Below the pieces are notes generated by a model. It saw only the letters and a list, made by a program, of their open reading frames with translations. It was not told the origin of the DNA and did no database searches. DNA of 64,000 bases from Pyrococcus kukulkanii (GTDB lineage Archaea > Methanobacteriota_B > Thermococci > Thermococcales > Thermococcaceae): positions 186,001-250,000 of the forward strand of contig NZ_CP010835.1 in NCBI RefSeq assembly GCF_001577775.1, in the 5' to 3' direction. Each line of letters begins with the position of its first letter. Position 1 is the first letter of the stretch. A program made the position numbers and the translations under genes. Positions 7,121-30,084 of this stretch are shown piece after piece.

Positions 7121-8710
7121 ATGAGGAAACTAATGAGTATATATATTATAGTACTAATACTAGCGTTAAGTGTAAATCAGGTGGTTAGTGAAAGCTTTGC
7201 TTTGGCAGGGTACACTAATCCCTACGATGAGTTTTGGAGGATACTAGACAGAGAAGCTGAATTGGTAGTTGAGCTAAACAAAACGAGGGATGGTGAAATT
7301 GCTAAACAGTTGATAGAGAACTCCAGGTTAGGAGCGGAGAACGCCGCAAATATCTCGGCCTTAATATGGATGAGCATTCAAGAGCTTAAGAAGTCCGGAG
7401 TGAAGCTATACTACACAGAGGAAGAGCTCAGGAAGATGGCCTATGAGATTAAAGAATATGGACTGCCTCAAGAAACGGTAAAGGCATTGAAGGAGCAAGG
7501 GTGGAGTGACGCTGAGATTAAAGCCTTAGAGAGATACATTGCCCAGAATGCCGATAAAATAGAGGGAGACTTTGACATGGAAGAGTTCTTGGTGAACATG
7601 AGCAGGGCTTTCGTGGACGTCGGATTCAAGTACAATGAGTATGAGAGGTGGGCCCTTGAGGTATGGCTATGGAAGGAACAGGATAGGCCCCCCAAACCTA
7701 CCAAGGACAAGGAGATAAACCCAGTGCTCAGCCTTACGTGGGTTAACTTTTACTCCGCCTACGCTAAAGGAGATATAGAGGCTCAGCTTTCCTGGATAAC
7801 GAAGCTTAGGGATAAGATGGTAGATGTACTCACGACAGTATACGTTGAGCCGAGGCCTCCAAAAGGAGAATCTCCAGTTCTCAGGATCGAGGGTGGAAGG
7901 GCGAGAGTTCTTCAGGCAAAGTACAAGGGAGTTACCGCGTACATAAGGGGAGGAGGAGTCAAGTTTAACATGGCAGAATACACGATATTGCCTAACAGGA
8001 TAGTGGAGAAATCCTACTACTGGCCTCACGCCCTTAGGGCCTATGAGCTTGCCAGTGAAATTAGAACCATACTCTTGGCGATGAACTTGGGTAACGGGGA
8101 CAAGAGACTTGAGGGAATATTGAACGAAAAGGTCTCAGAGTTACACTCTGCCCTTGTCGTCTATAAATTGAGTGAGCGCAGCATAGGTCAGCCGTATAGG
8201 GGTTTTATAAGGCTCTCAATAAAAACGCTTCCACCAAGAACGGGGACACAGAGCTTGGGCATTGACCAGAGGATACTCCTTAAAGCCCTTACACCAGAGG
8301 AAGATGAGGGGAAACTAATCGTCGCGATAGAGGCAGTTCCCACAAAAACTACCGAATCTTACGTTAAATACAAGCTCAAGATAAAGCTGGAAGCAGAAAA
8401 TAATGCCGTAAGGAACTTAAAGATCAAGGTCAGTGGAGATGGCTTGGAGTATTCAAAGGAGATAGATATCCTTTACCCTGAAGATGGAGGGAAGATCGTC
8501 GAGACCAATGCAAGTAAGGCCATCTATGACGACGATCATGACGGAATGGTTAAGGTGGAAGGCAAGGTAGAGATAAGCTATATACCTGTATGCGGGAAGG
8601 CAATAAATTCGAAGTCCTTTACCCCGGACTCAACCCCCTTGGATGCGACAAGGAGAAAACTATTGTCGAGAGATACTCGGAAGATTTTGAGGTTAAAAAG
8701 CAAGAGGTAG
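7121..8710 (+). CDS. Long secreted polymorphic-toxin-like protein, N-terminal part (frameshifted)
   Basis: The ATG at 7121 follows GGTGAT and starts MRKLMSIYIIVLILALS, a signal peptide with likely cleavage after about residue 24. A mainly helical region follows (about residues 30-230), then a mixed alpha/beta region, then the first Ig-like beta domain (about 430-500). Natural coding stops making sense near 8592: after VEISYIPVC the frame runs into a basic nonsense tail (RRKLLSRDTRKILRLKSKR). The next frame continues at once with EGNKFEVLYPGL. A single lost G in a G run (now GGG at about 8592-8594) explains the break. The original product would be about 1070 residues, spanning to 10329. It may act as a surface delivery stalk for the variable C-terminus. 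The family is not recognised beyond general resemblance to archaeal CARDB/COG1361 surface proteins. Confidence 0.7.
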   Translation: MRKLMSIYIIVLILALSVNQVVSESFALAGYTNPYDEFWRILDREAELVVELNKTRDGEIAKQLIENSRLGAENAANISALIWMSIQELKKSGVKLYYTEEELRKMAYEIKEYGLPQETVKALKEQGWSDAEIKALERYIAQNADKIEGDFDMEEFLVNMSRAFVDVGFKYNEYERWALEVWLWKEQDRPPKPTKDKEINPVLSLTWVNFYSAYAKGDIEAQLSWITKLRDKMVDVLTTVYVEPRPPKGESPVLRIEGGRARVLQAKYKGVTAYIRGGGVKFNMAEYTILPNRIVEKSYYWPHALRAYELASEIRTILLAMNLGNGDKRLEGILNEKVSELHSALVVYKLSERSIGQPYRGFIRLSIKTLPPRTGTQSLGIDQRILLKALTPEEDEGKLIVAIEAVPTKTTESYVKYKLKIKLEAENNAVRNLKIKVSGDGLEYSKEIDILYPEDGGKIVETNASKAIYDDDHDGMVKVEGKVEISYIPVCGKAINSKSFTPDSTPLDATRRKLLSRDTRKILRLKSKR

Positions 8711-10329
8711 ATACGGATAAGATTGAGCTCTCTATATATCCTTCTCCAGAGCATCCAAAAACGTTCCAAGATGTCACGTTTTACGTCACGATAACTAACG
8801 ATAACGACAAAGAGATCTCCGGTAAATGCACCGTCTACATAGCTTTGCCAGAGGGTACTGGGAGGTACTCGAAGGACGTGATTGTACCTGCCAGCAGCTC
8901 CAAAACATTCGAAATAGCAAAGGTTCGCTACGGTAAGCCCGGAACTTACGGGTACGGTGGGGTCTTTAAGTTTGGACAGTTTGAGGTTAGTGCTTCTGGT
9001 AGCGTTACCGTTTCCCAGGATAGCTCTGGATCCTCGGGGAGCTTGAAGATTAAACAGGTAACCTTTGAGCCATCATTGCCGAAAGTCCAGGACAACGTGA
9101 AAGTTAGGGTAAAGGTAAGCAACTCTTACTCAAGCAAGAAGACGGTTAAGGTAGAGCTTGTGGTTGATGGGAAAACGGTAAATCAAGTGGATGGAGTTGT
9201 TAGTGGAGGGAAAGAGAGGGAGTTCATCCTTTCTTGGACACCAACTGGGGCTGGAGAGTATGGGTGGATCGTTTATCTTTATGAAAAATCTGCCAACAAT
9301 GTATATTTAAAGAAAGATAGTAAGAGCGGAAGGATTGAGGTGACGAGAATAAACTCACCTTTCTCCGTAAGGTTATACGCCTATCCTACTGAGCTTGAGG
9401 GTGGTGGGGAAGTGACGTTCCTAGTGAAGGTTTGGAACTATGGTAATGACAGGGTTAGTCTTAAGGGTTTTGTGAGTGATGGGGATGGGGCGATAGTCAA
9501 GAACATTAACTGGACGGGAGTTCCAGCGAACGCTCAAAACTACACGGTGACAACATTCACCCTAACAGTTTATGGAGTAGGAGAACACAAGTACAAACTC
9601 TTCCTTGATAATTATGATGGAAAGCCAAACGGGAAGGGAGAGGAGCACTGGAGCGAGGTGAGGGTGGAAGTGAAGCCATGGCAAGCAAGTTTGAAACTGG
9701 AGTGTGATGGCAAAGTCATACTTGGTAAAGATGACGTTGACGACCTTGACTGCACTTTATATTTATTCAGGACTAACCCAAGTGACTCTGTGCAGGTCAA
9801 AATATCGGAAATCTACGTCGGAGGAGCAAAAGTGTGGCCGAGCAATTTTGAAGGAATTATAGTGTCTAAAGAAGTTCTCAAAGTAACTCCCTATGATCCA
9901 GACGACGAAACGCACATTGAACTTACAATAGATGAAAACTTTGCGGAGTTTTACTTTGGGATTGATCCCCTCTTTCCGTGGCATTCCTATGTTGACAAAC
10001 TCGCCACGGACAGGCCATGGGAGATAGTGTTGCACTTTGAAAACGCACCTCCAATAAGCGCAACTTTTAGGATCCTAAAGAACAGTGGTATTAGCCCTGA
10101 GGATGTAGTCGAATATGGTGGCTCAGGAACTTTTATTGCAACAGAAATTCTCGAAAGAGCAGGTTACATAACAACTGAGGCAACGGGACTCGGAAAAGTA
10201 GCAGTGGTTGGATCCAAGCTATTTGGATATGTAGGGCTACTGTTCTTCCTGACAGACATTGTCGAGGAGGCTTATTTCTATGGATGTAAGCAGCCGAGGG
10301 ATTCTGACAACGATGGTTTTGTGGGGTGA
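8593..10329 (+). CDS. Long secreted polymorphic-toxin-like protein, C-terminal part with Ig-like repeats and hydrophobic end
   Basis: This frame continues the protein that starts at 7121. It holds at least three CARDB-like Ig domains: one near 8725-9010, one near 9050-9345 (contains AGEYGWIVYLYEKSANN) and one near 9355-9680 (ends LDNYDGKPNGKGEEHWSEV). Then comes a variable module with a conserved Cys pair (KLECDGK ... DDLDCTLYL). The last 90 residues are hydrophobic and glycine-rich (VAVVGSKLFGYVGLLFFL), and the protein ends DSDNDGFVG. Both the Ig segments and the Cys module recur in downstream orphan copies. The stop TGA lies within the ribosome-binding site of the next membrane protein, so translation is probably coupled. 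An ATG at 8590 could start this half alone, but it has no ribosome-binding site. Confidence 0.7.
   Translation, partial: REGNKFEVLYPGLNPLGCDKEKTIVERYSEDFEVKKQEVDTDKIELSIYPSPEHPKTFQDVTFYVTITNDNDKEISGKCTVYIALPEGTGRYSKDVIVPASSSKTFEIAKVRYGKPGTYGYGGVFKFGQFEVSASGSVTVSQDSSGSSGSLKIKQVTFEPSLPKVQDNVKVRVKVSNSYSSKKTVKVELVVDGKTVNQVDGVVSGGKEREFILSWTPTGAGEYGWIVYLYEKSANNVYLKKDSKSGRIEVTRINSPFSVRLYAYPTELEGGGEVTFLVKVWNYGNDRVSLKGFVSDGDGAIVKNINWTGVPANAQNYTVTTFTLTVYGVGEHKYKLFLDNYDGKPNGKGEEHWSEVRVEVKPWQASLKLECDGKVILGKDDVDDLDCTLYLFRTNPSDSVQVKISEIYVGGAKVWPSNFEGIIVSKEVLKVTPYDPDDETHIELTIDENFAEFYFGIDPLFPWHSYVDKLATDRPWEIVLHFENAPPISATFRILKNSGISPEDVVEYGGSGTFIATEILERAGYITTEATGLGKVAVVGSKLFGYVGLLFFLTDIVEEAYFYGCKQPRDSDNDGFVG
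9241..9300 (+). repeat. Dispersed repeat A, copy 1 (parent gene)
   Basis: Encodes TGAGEYGWIVYLYEKSANN. A close copy lies at 14981-15040, at the front of the orphan module there. Identity is high at base level, including GATCGTTTATCTTTATGAAA in both. Confidence 0.8.
9601..9678 (+). repeat. Dispersed repeat B, copy 1 (parent gene)
   Basis: Encodes FLDNYDGKPNGKGEEHWSEV and a few further residues. Related copies lie at 10883-10917 (short), 13682-13760 (full) and 16311-16369 (degraded). By hand count about 68 of 78 bases match the 13682 copy, with many differences at third codon positions. It marks the point after which sequence becomes variable. Confidence 0.8.
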
Positions 10330-10334
10330 TAACT

Positions 10335-10853
10335 ATGGATTGGTTTCGAGTTCATAACATTCTAACTTTTTACCTTCCGGTTTTGATTTTTGTCTCTCTC
10401 GTTTATGGGTTCATAACAAAAAACTCCAAAATGTTGATATATTCTCTAGGATACTTGGTGGCTTACTTTTCCATTAGGCTTGAGATTCATCATTATCAGA
10501 ATAAGTTGAGCTTGCACGGGGATAGGAGGTTTGTCAGGGCTCTGATAGTGTTGGATTTGTTTGCGGTAGGATTTTTGTTGCCTATGGTTCTCTCTTACAC
10601 AAACAGGGCAAATTTCATCAGAAATATAATACTTTATCTTGGGGTGGGGGTTCTAATTTATGCTATGGCCTGGAAATTAATTGAAAAGCTGACAGAACGC
10701 CGGCTACTCATTATCTCACTGGGGCTCTCCCTAGTGATTGGTATGACTACAGGAGGCATTTTAGAACCGCTGATATTTGCACTTCTTGCTTTATGGACAT
10801 ACTTAGTAGTGAAACATAATCTAGTGCCTTACGCTGAGAAAAACAATGGCTAA
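10335..10853 (+). CDS. Polytopic membrane protein, putative immunity partner of the long secreted protein
   Basis: A 172-residue protein with about six hydrophobic segments (for example ILTFYLPVLIFVSLVYGF, LIVLDLFAVGFLLPMVL and LLIISLGLSLVIGMTTGG). The ATG at 10335 is four bases from GGGGTGAT (10323-10330), which lies within the end of the preceding gene. A GTG at 10326 would overlap that stop and is a weaker choice. The tight coupling and membrane location suit an immunity protein against a membrane-acting C-terminal domain. That role is inferred from layout only. Confidence 0.6.
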   Translation: MDWFRVHNILTFYLPVLIFVSLVYGFITKNSKMLIYSLGYLVAYFSIRLEIHHYQNKLSLHGDRRFVRALIVLDLFAVGFLLPMVLSYTNRANFIRNIILYLGVGVLIYAMAWKLIEKLTERRLLIISLGLSLVIGMTTGGILEPLIFALLALWTYLVVKHNLVPYAEKNNG

Positions 10854-10882
10854 AGTACAAGTCCTAGAACGAAAAGAAGTAA

Positions 10883-11303
10883 CACTGGAGTGAAGTGACG
10901 GTGAAGGTGAGGCCCGTAAGCAATGTTATTGCAAGCATGGAGTGCATGGATTCTGCTATTCCCTATGATGGGTCAACAACTTGCAAAGTTACGTTGGTTA
11001 ATAAGGAAAAAACAAGCGTGACTATATCTGTAACTTCAGTAGATTTTGGGACTGTTCAGAATGCTTGGGCAAGGAGCTACCAATGGGGAATAAAGGTGGA
11101 TCCTATAACAATAACCTTACCGTACAATGGTGATAAGGAGATTGATGTAAAAATCGACTTAAGAATGCTCGCTCAGGACTTTTGGGGAAGTTCTCACTAT
11201 GTATATAAATTTGCAGAATACACATCATATGGGATAGTTGTCCACCTCAACAACGGGATCACGGTCAGCCGATAATGATGGAAACTCGGTAAATGGGAGG
11301 TGA
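10883..11303 (+). pseudogene. Orphan toxin-like module C1
   Basis: The frame opens right after a TAA with HWSEVTVKVRP, matching the junction segment of the parent gene, and has no proper start (first GTG at 10895). It then carries the two-Cys module (ASMECMDS ... STTCKVTLVNKEK) and an Ig-like stretch to about 11260. There the frame is lost: the direct frame stops at 11275, while a shifted frame gives DNDGNSVNGR and a stop at 11303, matching the tail seen in sister modules. The hydrophobic C-terminal domain is absent. It is probably a silent or decayed cassette. Confidence 0.6.
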
Positions 11304-11309
11304 TGTTAT

Positions 11310-11615
11310 GTGGGCCAAAATGAACAGAATTGGGTTTTTCTGTTGGCACTTTCTTTGTCCCCTCTTTTAGTGTTATTAATAATGGCGTCAACCACAAGAC
11401 TTGATTTACCAACTGTTTTAATTTTTAACTTGCTCTCGGTGCCTTTCCTTGCCATTGGAGGTTTACTGCTTGAGAAAAAGGATCCTTCTCCTCTCATTGC
11501 TGGTTCTCTTTTCATCCCTTTTGCAAGCCTTTTAATAACTGTAACTAAGGAAATCTTCCAAATAATCGGAATAATTATAGTTGCCTCTTTACTAGTTAAT
11601 ATTTTCTCATTATGA
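11310..11615 (+). CDS. Membrane protein, immunity-like (probably truncated by frameshift)
   Basis: 101 residues from a GTG that follows GGGAGGTGAT. It has three hydrophobic segments (VFLLALSLSPLLVLLIMA; LIFNLLSVPFLAIGGLLL; IIGIIIVASLLVNIFSL). The middle part resembles the protein at 12452-13078 (LLSVPFLAIGGLLLEKKD versus MVSLPFLFIGYLFAKEKE). A frame shift near 11600 would join it to the membrane segments at the start of the next open frame and restore a product of about 200 residues, the length of its relative. Confidence 0.5.
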   Translation: MGQNEQNWVFLLALSLSPLLVLLIMASTTRLDLPTVLIFNLLSVPFLAIGGLLLEKKDPSPLIAGSLFIPFASLLITVTKEIFQIIGIIIVASLLVNIFSL

Positions 11616-11640
11616 GCTCGGACATGAAGGAAGTTACAGG

Positions 11641-12447
11641 ATGGGGTATTATTGTGGAATTCTCTTGACGGTGGCGCTAGGTATGCGTTCGGAAACTTCC
11701 CTAGTGTTGTTGGGTGGCATTGTTGGAATGTATGTAGCAGTAGCAAAATCTGATGTTCGGTTAGAGGGGATAATCTTTAATGGATTGTTTGCAGTGGCTG
11801 CATGCGAGTTCATTAAGTTACAGTTGCAAAGTTCGTGGAGATTTTGCGGTATTGCATGGATGGTAGCATTGCTTTACTCTGGTCTTGCATTTGCTATCTC
11901 AAAGAAACATTCACTACTAATAGTAAAGCTTAACTTAAGGGAGTTTGGTGGTAAGAAGGTATGGCCTAACGGTCCGAGTAGTGTCACAGTTAACAAGCAA
12001 ACTGTAACTCTAACTCCAACAAACATGCAGGAGGATTTGACCGTGACGATCACGGTAAATGATGAGCTGGCTGACTATTACTTTGGTCATTGGGGATATA
12101 CTCACAGATTACTTGAAACTCCCTCATATCTGATTGAAGTTCATTTGGCCGGCTTAACGTTCCCTATCTCCGATGTTATAACAATTGTGGAAGATGAAAA
12201 GGACTGGAAGGATGTAGCGGTTGGTCTAGCTGCGGACTTCGCAGGAGGTGCAGTAGTTGTGGTAATTGCAGGCACAAATCCAATATCACTCTCATTTGTA
12301 GCAACGTTTCTTGCTGGAGCAGCAACAACGGAATATGTAATAAAACCACTAGGCACGTTCATATGGGATTTATGGGGGAATATTGCTTGGGGATTCAGTA
12401 ATCCTGGGGCGGGAGAAAATGATAATAACTCTGTAGCTGGGGGGTGA
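11641..12447 (+). CDS. Chimeric protein: immunity-like membrane segments fused to toxin-like module C2
   Basis: 268 residues with two unlike halves. Residues 1-100 are membrane helices (ILLTVALGM; LVLLGGIVGMYVAV; IAWMVALLYSGLAFAIS) that look like the lost end of the preceding membrane protein. From about residue 100 the sequence matches the parent protein's variable module (GGKKVWPNGPSS versus GGAKVWPSNFEG in the parent), then NDELADYYFGHWGY. A hydrophobic, glycine-rich end follows (LAADFAGGAVVVVIAGTN; FVATFLAGAATTEYV), with tail GENDNNSVAGG. The junction falls inside the two-Cys module, so this looks like a recombination product. No good ribosome-binding site precedes the ATG at 11641. Confidence 0.55.
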   Translation: MGYYCGILLTVALGMRSETSLVLLGGIVGMYVAVAKSDVRLEGIIFNGLFAVAACEFIKLQLQSSWRFCGIAWMVALLYSGLAFAISKKHSLLIVKLNLREFGGKKVWPNGPSSVTVNKQTVTLTPTNMQEDLTVTITVNDELADYYFGHWGYTHRLLETPSYLIEVHLAGLTFPISDVITIVEDEKDWKDVAVGLAADFAGGAVVVVIAGTNPISLSFVATFLAGAATTEYVIKPLGTFIWDLWGNIAWGFSNPGAGENDNNSVAGG

Positions 12448-12451
12448 GGAT

Positions 12452-13078
12452 ATGAGAGTAAGCATACGTGTCTCCCTTCCTCTTATTTTTCCAGGACTTT
12501 TAATGGTCTCCACACTTCAGATAATAGTAGCGGTCTCCGGTAGAGAAGAAGGGATAGCTGCTGGAGCTCTGTTTGCGATGGTATCTCTACCGTTCCTTTT
12601 CATTGGCTACCTCTTTGCAAAAGAAAAGGAGGATTTAATGTTCGTGCATGCAGTGTTACCTGTCTTAGGATTCTATCCATTCGCATACGCCACGAAAAGT
12701 CCCTCCTCGTGGATTTTGGCAGGTTTGGTGCTTTTAATTCCTGCATTATCAGCGAGGAACCTTAAGATGCAAAAAGGCAACGTTGATGCCACTATTCTGG
12801 CACTTTCAGTTATTGTGTGTCTTGGACTGCCAACAAAGACTCTCTCTGCAGTAGGTCTAGCGTCGCTGCTGTTGATGCACTACGTTGTGAAGAGAAACGT
12901 GAAGCTTAAAACAAAAGCGTTGTTCCTGATTTCGTACGTGATTCTATGGGGGCTGATAAACTGGAAGAGGGCAGATCCCGTCATAATGGGCATGGGAATT
13001 GTTTTTGGAGTTAGCATGTTCCTCCTAATGCACCTCACAGAGAAAAGATTAGGTGAGAATGGGTGGGAGCGATATTGA
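12452..13078 (+). CDS. Polytopic membrane protein, putative immunity protein
   Basis: 208 residues, about seven hydrophobic segments (LPLIFPGLLMVSTLQIIVAV; ALFAMVSLPFLFIGYLFA; ILALSVIVCLGL; PVIMGMGIVFGVSMFLLM). The ATG lies five bases after the TGA of the preceding gene, and GGGGGGTGAGG serves as both the end of that gene and the ribosome-binding site. It is the most complete member of the immunity-like family here; the product at 11310 is a shorter relative. Confidence 0.6.
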   Translation: MRVSIRVSLPLIFPGLLMVSTLQIIVAVSGREEGIAAGALFAMVSLPFLFIGYLFAKEKEDLMFVHAVLPVLGFYPFAYATKSPSSWILAGLVLLIPALSARNLKMQKGNVDATILALSVIVCLGLPTKTLSAVGLASLLLMHYVVKRNVKLKTKALFLISYVILWGLINWKRADPVIMGMGIVFGVSMFLLMHLTEKRLGENGWERY

Positions 13079-13089
13079 AAAGGTTGAAA

Positions 13090-13135
13090 CATGGTTTTCC
13101 GAAGAAAACGACAACAATTGTGTAGTGGGGGATGA
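13090..13135 (+). pseudogene. Relic C-terminal tail of a lost toxin-like module
   Basis: Between two membrane-protein genes the bases read FSEENDNNCVVGDE, matching the tail motif of modules C2 (ENDNNSVAGG) and C4 (SGDNNLIVGDES). The last part (GGGGGATGA) is the ribosome-binding site of the next gene. The body of the module is missing. Confidence 0.45.
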
Positions 13136-13666
13136 ATGTTGGACGTTTTCCTTGCTATTTCCATCTTTTTGTGGATTATTATCGGCATAGGAGCTCTTAT
13201 CTCAGAGTGCAGGGCATTGGTAGGGACGGGGGTGCTCTTGGCATCTTTTCTGTACCTTAAGATGAGCCAAACAAACAATGACCTCATGGCTTTCATGGCA
13301 ATATTCCTGCTTTGGCTGTCTCTATCGCTGTTAAGCGTCGCATGGTCTCTGAGAGGGATAATCAGGAGGGAAGTTGAAGCGGCGTGTTCCTTTGCATCTT
13401 TAGGTTACCTGCCCGTATTTGCTGTGCTACTCTTGAAGTATGGGATAATAGCCCTGATGGGTGTACTATTATGGTTCCCCATGTGGTACGGCTTTCGTAC
13501 GCAATATGTATATGAGCATGAGAAAACACGTATGGCTCTTACGTATCTTCCCGCACTATTGATGGCAATGCTCTTTCGCACATTCCTAGCAGTCCCATAT
13601 GGAGTCTTGCTGTGGTGGCTTGATGGAGATATCAAAAACTGCTGGATCTCAGGGGGGCAAACATGA
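13136..13666 (+). CDS. Polytopic membrane protein, putative immunity protein
   Basis: 176 residues with about six hydrophobic segments (FLAISIFLWIIIGIGALI; LMAFMAIFLLWLSLSLLSV; ALLMAMLFRTFLAVPYGVLL). The ATG follows GGGGGATGA with ideal spacing. It differs in sequence from the protein at 12452, as expected if each immunity protein suits its own module. Its own module upstream survives only as a short tail. Confidence 0.55.
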   Translation: MLDVFLAISIFLWIIIGIGALISECRALVGTGVLLASFLYLKMSQTNNDLMAFMAIFLLWLSLSLLSVAWSLRGIIRREVEAACSFASLGYLPVFAVLLLKYGIIALMGVLLWFPMWYGFRTQYVYEHEKTRMALTYLPALLMAMLFRTFLAVPYGVLLWWLDGDIKNCWISGGQT

Positions 13667-13679
13667 AGCAATGAAATAG

Positions 13680-14342
13680 CTCTTCCTCGACAACTACGAG
13701 GGAAAGCCGAACGGGAAGGGGAAGGAGCACTGGAGCGAGGTGACGGTGGAAGTGAAACCAATGAACGGAACAGAGTTAAAACAAGTAGGCTTTGAATGCA
13801 ACGATCCTGAATTTCACTGGGATAACATAGAGTACAAGGCCATGTTAGTGTGCAAGGCATTTATCTATAATCCTGCGCAGGAAGCTGTCTCTTTGAACTC
13901 AGTTAGCGTCAAGGAGTGGCATACTGACAACTCAGAGTTCATGAGCTCTCTTGATTCCTCATGGACGGTTGAGTATCCAGAGGTAATACAGAGTTCTAAA
14001 ATTGCTACGATAGTCTTCAAGAATACAGCGCACACAGGACTCATAACTCTTGAAAAAGACTTGTTTGGAGCTCATGTCTTGATATCGCTGAGGTACGTAA
14101 TATCTCCACAGAATGGAAACGACATTATATTCACGGGCACTGACACAGTAAACATAAAGCAGGATAATAAGGACGTGACAGTAGACGTTGGGACTAACTT
14201 GGCCCTTATAGGGCTTGATGTTAAGGCCGGAATAACCATAATAAGGCTGGTGCGCAGTAGAGAAACAATGAAGGCCCTCAAAAGCGCTTGGCCCTACGTG
14301 GTGAGCTTCTTCAGGTGGGCATGGCCAAAACTCGATAGCTGA
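13680..14342 (+). CDS. Orphan toxin-like module C3 (no proper start)
   Basis: The frame opens after a TAG at 13677-13679 and begins with LFLDNYEGKPNGKGKEHWSE, a copy of the parent junction segment. It has no ATG there; the first GTG is 13740. The two-Cys module follows (VGFECNDPEF ... AMLVCKAFIYNP). The C-terminal 60 residues contain a hydrophobic helix (LALIGLDVKAGITIIRLV) and an aromatic end (YVVSFFRWAWPKLDS). It is followed by its own membrane partner at 14357. It looks like a silent cassette that could replace the parent gene's end by recombination through repeat B. Confidence 0.6.
   Translation, partial: LFLDNYEGKPNGKGKEHWSEVTVEVKPMNGTELKQVGFECNDPEFHWDNIEYKAMLVCKAFIYNPAQEAVSLNSVSVKEWHTDNSEFMSSLDSSWTVEYPEVIQSSKIATIVFKNTAHTGLITLEKDLFGAHVLISLRYVISPQNGNDIIFTGTDTVNIKQDNKDVTVDVGTNLALIGLDVKAGITIIRLVRSRETMKALKSAWPYVVSFFRWAWPKLDS
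13682..13760 (+). repeat. Dispersed repeat B, copy in module C3
   Basis: Nearly the full repeat B of the parent gene (9601-9678), same frame. Differences fall mostly at third codon positions (GATAATTATGAT versus GACAACTACGAG), so the encoded protein is almost unchanged. Confidence 0.8.
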
Positions 14343-14891: not shown

Positions 14892-14950
14892 ATGAGAGTT
14901 AAAAGCTTAGACTTGTAGTTTGCCTTTATTTTTTTATCTAAAAGGTAGAA
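14892..14950 (+). pseudogene. Relic start of an immunity-like membrane gene
   Basis: ATG at 14892 follows GTGGGGGAAAT and reads MRVKSLDL, then stop, then FAFIFLSKR and stop. The MRV start and following hydrophobic run recall the gene at 12452 (MRVSIRVSLPLIF). It is cut short where module C4 begins. Confidence 0.35.
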
Positions 14951-14967
14951 TCAGGGATATCGCAGTG

Positions 14968-16044
14968 CTAGACGACTACTCAACTGAGGCTGGAGAGCAT
15001 GGATGGATCGTTTATCTTTATGAAAAGATAGCCAACAATAGGTTTGTGCGGAGGGACAGTGCAGATGGGATTGTTGAGGTAAGTGAGGAAAATGAAGGGA
15101 TGTCAGGTAAGCTTGTTGTGGGAAATAGGGAAGGTAGTGAAGTAACGTTTGACGTTATTGTGGAGAACAGGGGGCAGGAGATCGTTTATTATCCAGTTGT
15201 TAGGGTTTATTATTCCTATGAAGCCCCAGATGGAGAATTCGGCAAGCCAATACTTGTCTTTGAGAGACAACCTAAGGAGTTGTTTCCGGGAGAAACTTAC
15301 AAGGATTGGTTTAAAATGACACTAACAAACCCAGGAAAGCATCATTTCACCCTTTATGTCAATGGTGAGTGGGAAGACGAGGAGACGATAACAACAACCT
15401 CAAAGGCGAGCATAGAGGCATGGATGGAATGTGCTCCAGAATTCGTTAGTGATGACGTGAATTCAGTAACCTGTGAGATTAACGTTAAGAATTCCGGCAG
15501 TGCTTCAGTGGAAGTTTGGGTAACAAATATTTACTTTGCTGGAGGGGAAGTATATGATAGGAGTAGCGATAACAATCTAGTAAATCCAAATCCGAGCAGT
15601 CTAAGCTTAAACCCAGCTCTTCAGGAGCATTCACGTTCACAATTCCAATTAATGATGAATTGCAGGAGAGGATTCCGGTGGATTTAAGCAACATAAACCC
15701 CGGAACACCAATAGCAATCAAGGCATACATAAACCAACTAAAAGAGCCAGTAATGAGCGTGGTAGAGATGAATCCAATAGATCTTGGAGATTTTTCATTG
15801 CCAGAAAAAGAAATCGCAACTGGTATTGGGGGTGGGATAGCAGGAGCTTTAACGTACTTTATCACAAATGAAGGAGCTACCCTAGTGGAAGCTCTTACAG
15901 CTGCTGGAATGGGGAGCTTTGGGCGTATATGTTTCTTTGGGCTCCATTCTTGGATTTTGGATTTACTTGGCCTATGAAGGAACTAAGCCGGTACCTCCGA
16001 GCGATTCTGGTGACAATAATTTAATAGTAGGTGATGAGTCATGA
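14968..16044 (+). pseudogene. Orphan toxin-like module C4 (frameshifted)
   Basis: Homology to the parent begins with STEAGEHGWIVYLYEKIANN (repeat A). A further Ig-like domain and the two-Cys module follow (AWMECAPEF ... NSVTCEINVKN). Near 15615 the frame shifts by one and continues as FTIPINDELQERIPVD, then a glycine-rich hydrophobic end (EIATGIGGGIAGALTYFI). A second shift near 15925 leads to YVSLGSILGFWIYLAYEG and the tail SGDNNLIVGDES, with TGA at 16042-16044. This last frame overlaps the ATG of the next membrane gene (ATGA). At least two shifts make it a pseudogene as sequenced. No start codon with a ribosome-binding site was found. Confidence 0.6.
14981..15040 (+). repeat. Dispersed repeat A, copy in module C4
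   Basis: Copy of 9241-9300. Encodes TEAGEHGWIVYLYEKIANN. Confidence 0.8.
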
Positions 16045-29142: not shown

Positions 29143-29237
29143 TATACCTCCCAAATCCATTTTACCACTTGGGGATTTAAAAAATTGTGCTCCAAATATT
29201 TAAATTTTAGATGAGCCTAATTTCATCGGGGATTGAG

Positions 29238-30084
29238 ATGTTTAAAATTGACAAGCTAAGGTTTGGAACTGCTGGGATTCCACTCTCAACTCCTAAGCCG
29301 TCGACGATTGCTGGAATTGAACAAGTTAGACAGTTAGGATTAGATGCTATGGAGCTTGAATTTGTAAGAGGAATTAACATAAAGCCTGAATTAGCTAAAA
29401 AAAATTAAGCATGTCGCTAAAAAGAATGATGTCGTTTTAACTGCTCATGCTCCCTACTACATAAACCTCAACGCTAAGGAAAAGGAAAAAGTTGAGGCGA
29501 GTAAAAGGAGGATAATTCAGAGCGCTGAGAGGCTTTATGAGGCTGGGGGATGGAGTTTAGTTTTTCACGCGGGCTACTATCTAAAGCAACCCCCTGAACA
29601 GGTTTACAGCAACATAAAATCTGCATTGGAGGATATTGTCGAGGAGCTAAAGTCAAGGGGGATAAAAGTCTGGGTAAGACCTGAGCTAACAGGTAAGCCC
29701 ACTCAATTTGGAGACCTTAGGGAGCTAATAAAGTTAAGTCAAGAAGTCGACATGGTCCTGCCCGCGATAGATTTTGCTCATGCACATGCCAGGAATAAGG
29801 GTGGGTGTAACTCTGAGGAAGAGTGGAGAGAGATGTTAACCCTAATAGAGAATGAGCTAGGGAAGGAGGCCCTGAGGAACATGCACATTCACATAAGCGG
29901 AATCGAATATGGGGAGAAGGGTGAGAAGAGGCACCTCAACTTGCAGGAGAGTGATCTCAAATGGGAGGATCTCCTGAGGATTTTGAAGGAGTTCAACGTT
30001 AGGGGGGTAGTTATTAGTGAGAGCCCGAACATCGAGGGGGATGCAATTTTAATGAAGAGGAAGTGGGAAGAGCTAAAAGTTTAA
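29238..30084 (+). pseudogene. nfo: Endonuclease IV-like TIM-barrel protein, frameshifted
   Basis: Two frames form one AP-endonuclease-2-family protein of about 281 residues. The first runs from ATG at 29238 (MFKIDKLRFGTAGIPLS) to ELAKKN and stop at 29408. The second continues KHVAKKNDVVLTAHAPYYIN to 30084. The join is an A8 run at 29397-29404; seven A residues would keep the frame. Metal-site segments are present: LTAHAPYY, VFHAGYY, RPELTGK, AIDFAHAHA, HIHISGIEY and ISESP. Family members cut abasic sites in DNA repair. It may be a true mutation, a read error or slippage at the A-run. Confidence 0.8.

What the first reader, a model, noticed from the sequence alone, without database searches (positions are those of the whole stretch)
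8585..8600. Frame break in a G run splits the long surface protein in two
The frame from 7121 reads sensibly up to IPVC near 8592 and then becomes basic nonsense; the next frame continues with EGNKFEVLYPGL. Adding one G to the GGG restores one protein of about 1070 residues. It is either inactivation, phase variation at a G tract, or a read error.
Basis: seen in the sequence. Interest (0 to 1): 0.6.

Follow-up and report, generated by a model that had tools for sequence, protein, structure and literature searches.

The report
Broken head gene of VARTIG island
A large surface-protein gene in a heat-loving archaeon is split by a small frame error; it heads a known, highly variable gene island (VARTIG) in which broken genes are common, so this is most likely ordinary decay of one copy (or a sequencing slip), not a phase-variation switch.

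Summary
The frame break is real in the sequence: 7121-8710 and 8590-10329 encode the two collinear halves of one protein that is a single open frame in the sister species, in a paralog in the same genome (1070 aa) and in many relatives. Homology puts the break at about 8612-8642, past the GGG at 8594-8596, and codon usage at 8600-8615. It cannot be fixed to one base. No tract is long enough for a contingency switch.

The gene is the "head" of a VARTIG island (Makarova 2021). Genome length matches Pyrococcus kukulkanii NCB100. Heads carry frame-breaking lesions in about 10 of 24 copies in complete genomes. Frame-changing indels between the two sister assemblies are 6-9 times denser in VARTIG DNA than elsewhere at equal identity. 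That favours genuine loss of frame. A sequencing error stays possible: the assembly used Ion Torrent, and a single-copy ATPase subunit gene is also split in it.

By-products: a sharp recombination boundary lies about 60-110 nt downstream of the break, and the C-terminal cassette on the head in one sister species is an orphan cassette in the other. Interest is modest.

The parts
7121..8710 (+). N-terminal half of the VARTIG head gene (frame A): signal-like start, conserved N-terminal region with LGN motif, up to the linker; the last ~25-40 codons are probably out of frame
   Evidence: homologous to the N-terminal half of intact ORFs
8590..10329 (+). C-terminal half of the head gene (frame B, open from about 8554): Ig-type domains and the C-terminal cassette
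   Evidence: CARDB PF07705 E=4e-7, above the curated cut-off
8594..8642 (+). Interval that holds the frame break; homology favours 8612-8642, codon usage 8600-8615
8594..8596 (+).
   Evidence: only 3 bases; in phase with the sister past it
8622..8638 (+). Stretch with a C4 run (8622-8625) and a C5 run (8634-8638) inside the break interval
   Evidence: read from the sequence; longest run in the interval is C5
8700..8710 (.). Recombination boundary against the sister species: synonymous divergence falls from 0.5-0.9 to 0-0.15
   Evidence: sliding 30-codon comparison
9594..9677 (+). Anchor block (..FLDNYDGKPNGKGEEHWSEVRVEVKP) shared by heads and orphan cassettes in this genome and its sister; point of cassette exchange
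   Evidence: 82-91% repeats in both VARTIG loci of G000 and in G006
9678..10329 (+). C-terminal cassette carried by the head here; an orphan cassette in the sister (G006 C3:13767-12866, 83%)
10326..10853 (+). 175-aa hydrophobic protein next to the head (position of a putative partner or immunity protein)
   Evidence: hydrophobic by inspection only
10883..11275 (+). Orphan C-terminal Ig cassette
   Evidence: starts with the anchor HWSEVTVKVRP
11596..12447 (+). ORF that joins a hydrophobic stretch to an orphan cassette end with the motif DNNSVAGG
13680..14342 (+). Orphan C-terminal cassette with a remnant of the anchor; its 97% counterpart is the C-terminus of the head in the sister G006
14911..16044 (+). 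Orphan cassette broken by frame-changing indels here and, at another place, in the sister

Best explanation
This is the large Ig-domain 'head' gene of a VARTIG island that has lost its reading frame through a small net frame-changing indel in a fast-evolving linker between its N-terminal half and its Ig domains. As sequenced, the cell would make a secreted N-terminal stub of about 530 residues with an out-of-frame tail; the Ig region and C-terminal cassette would not be exported, so this copy is inactive. The event is recent in a gene that had been under purifying selection, and it belongs to an ongoing turnover in which VARTIG heads and cassettes are recombined, displaced and broken. A second, intact head in the same genome may carry the function. 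Shown: the break, intact relatives, the excess of broken heads and of frame-changing indels, the recombination boundary and the cassette swap. Inferred: loss of function, recency, and that the lesion is in the cell and not only in the assembly.
For: One ORF in the sister, the paralog and many relatives. About 10 of 24 heads in complete genomes carry frameshifts or in-frame stops, against about 7 breaks in some 690 ortholog comparisons, or about 4% for a gene of this length. Frame-changing indels between the same two assemblies: 2.2/kb in VARTIG tiles against 0.35/kb elsewhere at 94-99% identity, 4.5 against 0.5 at 90-94% (P=8e-5 by tile). Orphan cassettes are broken independently in both species. 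dN/dS 0.16 (A) and 0.19 (B) against the sister and no second lesion suggest a recent break. The VARTIG paper also reports pseudogene fragments (PMC8416519).
Against: The assembly contains probable indel errors (a single-copy A-type ATPase subunit I gene is split) and used Ion Torrent reads; C4 and C5 runs lie in the break interval. No reads could be examined. The count of broken heads and the list of background breaks were curated by hand.
Confidence: 0.66

Rival explanations
1. Residual sequencing or assembly error: the gene is intact in the cell and the deposited sequence has a wrong base count in the linker.
For: Ion Torrent plus Illumina hybrid assembly (PMC5313631); Ion Torrent gives homopolymer indels (PMC12046094); C4/C5 runs in the interval; a single-copy A-type ATPase subunit I gene is also split in this assembly; no second lesion in the gene.
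Against: Illumina depth was high (13 million read pairs). The VARTIG-specific excess of indels is measured within the same two assemblies, and heads are broken in other assemblies too.
Confidence: 0.27
2. Phase variation: slipped-strand changes at a homopolymer switch the surface protein on and off.
For: A variable surface protein; short C runs in the linker here and in G073, which is broken in the same linker next to a C5 run.
Against: Runs of 3-5 bases are too short for a typical contingency tract; lesions in relatives lie at scattered places with different runs or none; the sister has no C run of such length there.
Confidence: 0.04
3. Programmed -1 frameshifting or transcript slippage on the C5 run yields both a stub and the full protein.
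For: The direction fits: slipping back one base on CCCCC joins frame A to frame B (read from the sequence).
Against: Relatives encode the protein in one frame without any such site; no classical slippery heptamer was seen by inspection; no stimulatory structure was tested.
Confidence: 0.02
4. Two separate functional proteins, the second starting at ATG 8590.
For: An ATG exists at 8590 and both halves are open.
Against: No Shine-Dalgarno-like stretch before 8590 and no signal peptide on a protein of extracellular Ig domains (by inspection); relatives are fused.
Confidence: 0.01

Closest known systems
VARTIG module with large Ig protein arCOG07710 (Makarova, Wolf, Karamycheva, Koonin 2021, PMC8416519)
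   Same: Large secreted-type protein first, Ig/CARDB domains, conserved GN motif, variable C-terminal region, downstream hydrophobic genes and orphan C-terminal copies, Thermococcales; pseudogene fragments also reported there.
   Different: This head is broken by a single frame change; a cassette swap between head and orphan is seen between sister species, whereas the paper found no sign of recombination within loci.
Polymorphic toxin systems with orphan cassettes (as compared with VARTIG in PMC8416519)
   Same: Works like one in layout: long head, exchangeable C-terminal part, orphan C-terminal cassettes, small partner genes.
   Different: No toxin domain recognised in the head; no immunity function shown.
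Contingency (phase-variable) surface genes of bacteria
   Same: A frame break in a surface-protein gene.
   Different: No long tract, no conserved tract, lesion sites scattered among relatives.

Membership tests
VARTIG module | Large protein at the 5' end with N-terminal signal and several Ig-type domains | tested here: met
   About 1070 residues in two frames; CARDB PF07705 E=4e-7; signal-like start by inspection only; homology to intact heads
VARTIG module | GN motif in the conserved N-terminal region | tested here: met
   LGN in window (MNLGNGDKRLEG), sister (MSLGNRDRRLEG) and MAG (MKLGNDNPELQW)
VARTIG module | Orphan genes homologous to the C-terminal region, followed by hydrophobic genes | tested here: met
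   Orphans at 10883-11275, 11596-12447, 13680-14342 and 14911-16044 with small hydrophobic ORFs between them
VARTIG module | C-terminal motif D[ND]NxxxG[GD] (in many members) | tested here: inconclusive
   Head ends in DSDNDGFVG, not a strict match; the cassette ending at 12447 has DNNSVAGG
VARTIG module | Assignment to arCOG07710 | not tested
   No arCOG library was at hand
VARTIG module | C-terminal variability by exchange between species | tested here: met
   Recombination boundary at 8705; cassettes swapped between head and orphan in two sister species
Polymorphic toxin system | Toxin domain in the C-terminal cassette | tested here: not met
   No Pfam toxin domain and no NCBIfam match; remote folds not tested
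Polymorphic toxin system | Cognate immunity protein | not testable with these tools
   A 175-aa hydrophobic gene follows the head; its function is unknown
Phase-variable contingency gene | Long repeat tract at the switching site, kept in relatives | tested here: not met
   G3, C4 and C5 only; no shared tract in relatives

The most novel reading that the evidence does not exclude
VARTIG heads are recurrently inactivated and re-armed: cassettes move between head and orphan positions by recombination at a conserved anchor block, and broken heads (about 40% of copies in complete genomes) are a normal state of this turnover rather than accidents. The break studied here, about 60-110 nt from a recombination boundary, would be one such event.
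Probability: 0.25. Interest if true: 0.5.

Novelty: new member of a known kind. Interest (0 to 1): 0.3.

Why it matters
It replaces a possible phase-variation locus with a frame-broken copy of a known archaeal hypervariable module. It adds two measured facts about that module: heads are broken far more often than other genes, and a C-terminal cassette can be on the head in one species and an orphan in its sister. The second bears on how VARTIG diversity arises, which the original authors left open.

Tried and rejected
Break in the GGG run: in-phase sister DNA past the run and composite scores disfavour it, while codon usage separates the sites only weakly. Chance overlap of two ORFs: rejected by intact homologs. 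Old pseudogene: no second lesion and low dN/dS. Contingency tract: none found. One genome-wide error rate as the whole explanation: does not explain the VARTIG-specific excess. Structure prediction was not run: an allowed alignment would have held only two or three sequences. The 'VARTIG' hit PMC11211831 was not opened; by its title it is strain-haplotyping software and was judged unrelated. The last lines of the indel script (a coding-only control) crashed and were not rerun, so the control includes non-coding DNA; that should make the comparison conservative.

Full report
What is there. The window is positions 186001-250000 of a single 1,977,126-base contig, the exact length published for Pyrococcus kukulkanii NCB100 (PMC5313631); the name is an inference from that length. 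Frame A runs from ATG 7121 to a stop at 8710, and frame B from about 8554 (ATG 8590) to 10329. A starts with a hydrophobic signal-like stretch. B has none and holds Ig-type domains (CARDB).

A sister genome, G006 (81-83% DNA identity), reads through the site in one frame up to its contig end. A paralog in the same genome at 50718 is one ORF of 1070 aa. A Thermococcus MAG has 1129 aa, and many other Thermococcaceae have about 900-1145 aa. The ancestral state is one protein.

Where the break is. The window DNA stays in phase with the sister past that run without a gap. Relatives have a short polar S/T/P linker between two cysteines here (CGDTPTSSPVTPSTSSTTC, CGAVPLSKNHETLSTSPSC and others), and frame A (CGKAINSKSFTPDSTPL) looks like that linker past the GGG. 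I slid the switch point along the linker without adding any base, using X at the join, and scored against five homologs. The sum rises from 419-445 at the GGG to 467-491 at 8612-8642. Codon usage alone favours 8600-8615. The break is therefore somewhere in 8594-8642, more likely past 8600. It cannot be fixed to one base.

What it belongs to. The locus fits the VARTIG module of Makarova et al. (PMC8416519): a large Ig protein first, then hydrophobic genes and orphan copies of its C-terminal region, specific to Thermococcales and highly variable. The paper reports pseudogene fragments among the large genes and does not name this species in its main text.

Real lesion or error? For error: Ion Torrent data were used, such data give homopolymer indels (PMC12046094), and C4 and C5 runs lie in the interval. 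A comparison of 850 kb of this genome with 1.2 Mb of two relatives gave about seven clear mid-gene breaks in some 690 ortholog comparisons (curated by hand from 24 candidates). They include the A-type ATPase subunit I gene, single copy by search, which is hard to believe as a natural loss, so some errors are probably in this assembly. For a genuine lesion: at that rate a 1070-codon gene has about a 4% risk, whereas about 10 of 24 VARTIG heads in complete genomes carry frameshifts or in-frame stops, in other assemblies and at other positions. Between the same two assemblies, frame-changing indels are 2.2/kb in VARTIG tiles and 0.35/kb elsewhere at 94-99% identity, and 4.5 against 0.5 at 90-94% (P=8e-5 by tile). 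A platform-wide error rate would not be confined to one kind of island. Orphan cassettes are broken independently in both species. I put genuine loss of frame at about two in three, error at about one in four.

How it works, as sequenced. Translation from 7121 would give a secreted stub that lacks the Ig region. B has no signal and no evident ribosome-binding site, so the Ig region would not reach the surface. dN/dS of 0.16-0.19 against the sister and no second lesion point to a recent event. The intact second head may keep the function. Loss of function is inferred, not shown.

Recombination around it. Synonymous divergence from the sister drops from 0.5-0.9 to 0-0.15 at about 8705: the gene is a mosaic, and its Ig region was exchanged recently between the lineages. 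The break is about 60-110 nt upstream of that boundary; with one case this may be chance. In the sister, the head's contig end overlaps another contig by exactly 77 nt, so its C-terminus is the cassette that in this window is an orphan (13680-14342). The cassette on this window's head is an orphan in the sister (C3:13767-12866). The exchange point is the anchor block 9594-9677, repeated in heads and orphans of these two genomes. Caveat: that 77-mer occurs twice on the sister's contig, so the join rests on its assembly and on collinearity downstream (97% over 4.9 kb). The VARTIG paper saw no recombination within loci, so this deserves a check with long reads.

Verdict. The finding is a correct observation of a frame break, misplaced by some 5-45 bases, in a gene of a known and strongly variable archaeal module. 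It is a new, broken member of a known kind. The phase-variation reading is not supported.

Noticed in passing
window 29211-30084: A conserved TIM-barrel gene of the AP-endonuclease-2/xylose-isomerase-like family (281 aa in G005) is split into two frames at about 29400, at a run of A. It may be another assembly error.
   Followed up: partly
G000:C1:142076-144090 (outside the window): The A-type ATPase subunit I gene, single copy by search, is split into two frames at about 143046; implausible as a natural loss, so a likely indel error.
   Followed up: yes
window 8700-8710: Abrupt drop in synonymous divergence from the sister genome inside the head gene: a recombination boundary.
   Followed up: yes
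window 9594-14342: C-terminal cassettes swapped between head and orphan positions in two sister species, with a conserved anchor block at the junction.
   Followed up: partly
window 14911-16044: Orphan cassette with frame breaks here and a different one in G006; the C-terminal motif GDNNLIVGD is out of frame in the window.
   Followed up: partly
G000:C1:50718-59000 (outside the window): A second VARTIG locus in the same genome with an intact 1070-aa head and its own cassettes.
   Followed up: partly
L175 (G073), about 2270-2330: Another Thermococcaceae head is broken in the same linker next to a C5 run, with the frame shifted the other way.
   Followed up: partly
G000:C1 about 157850 (outside the window): A long secreted-type gene (828 aa in G005) differs by a frame-changing 8-base stretch.
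   Followed up: no
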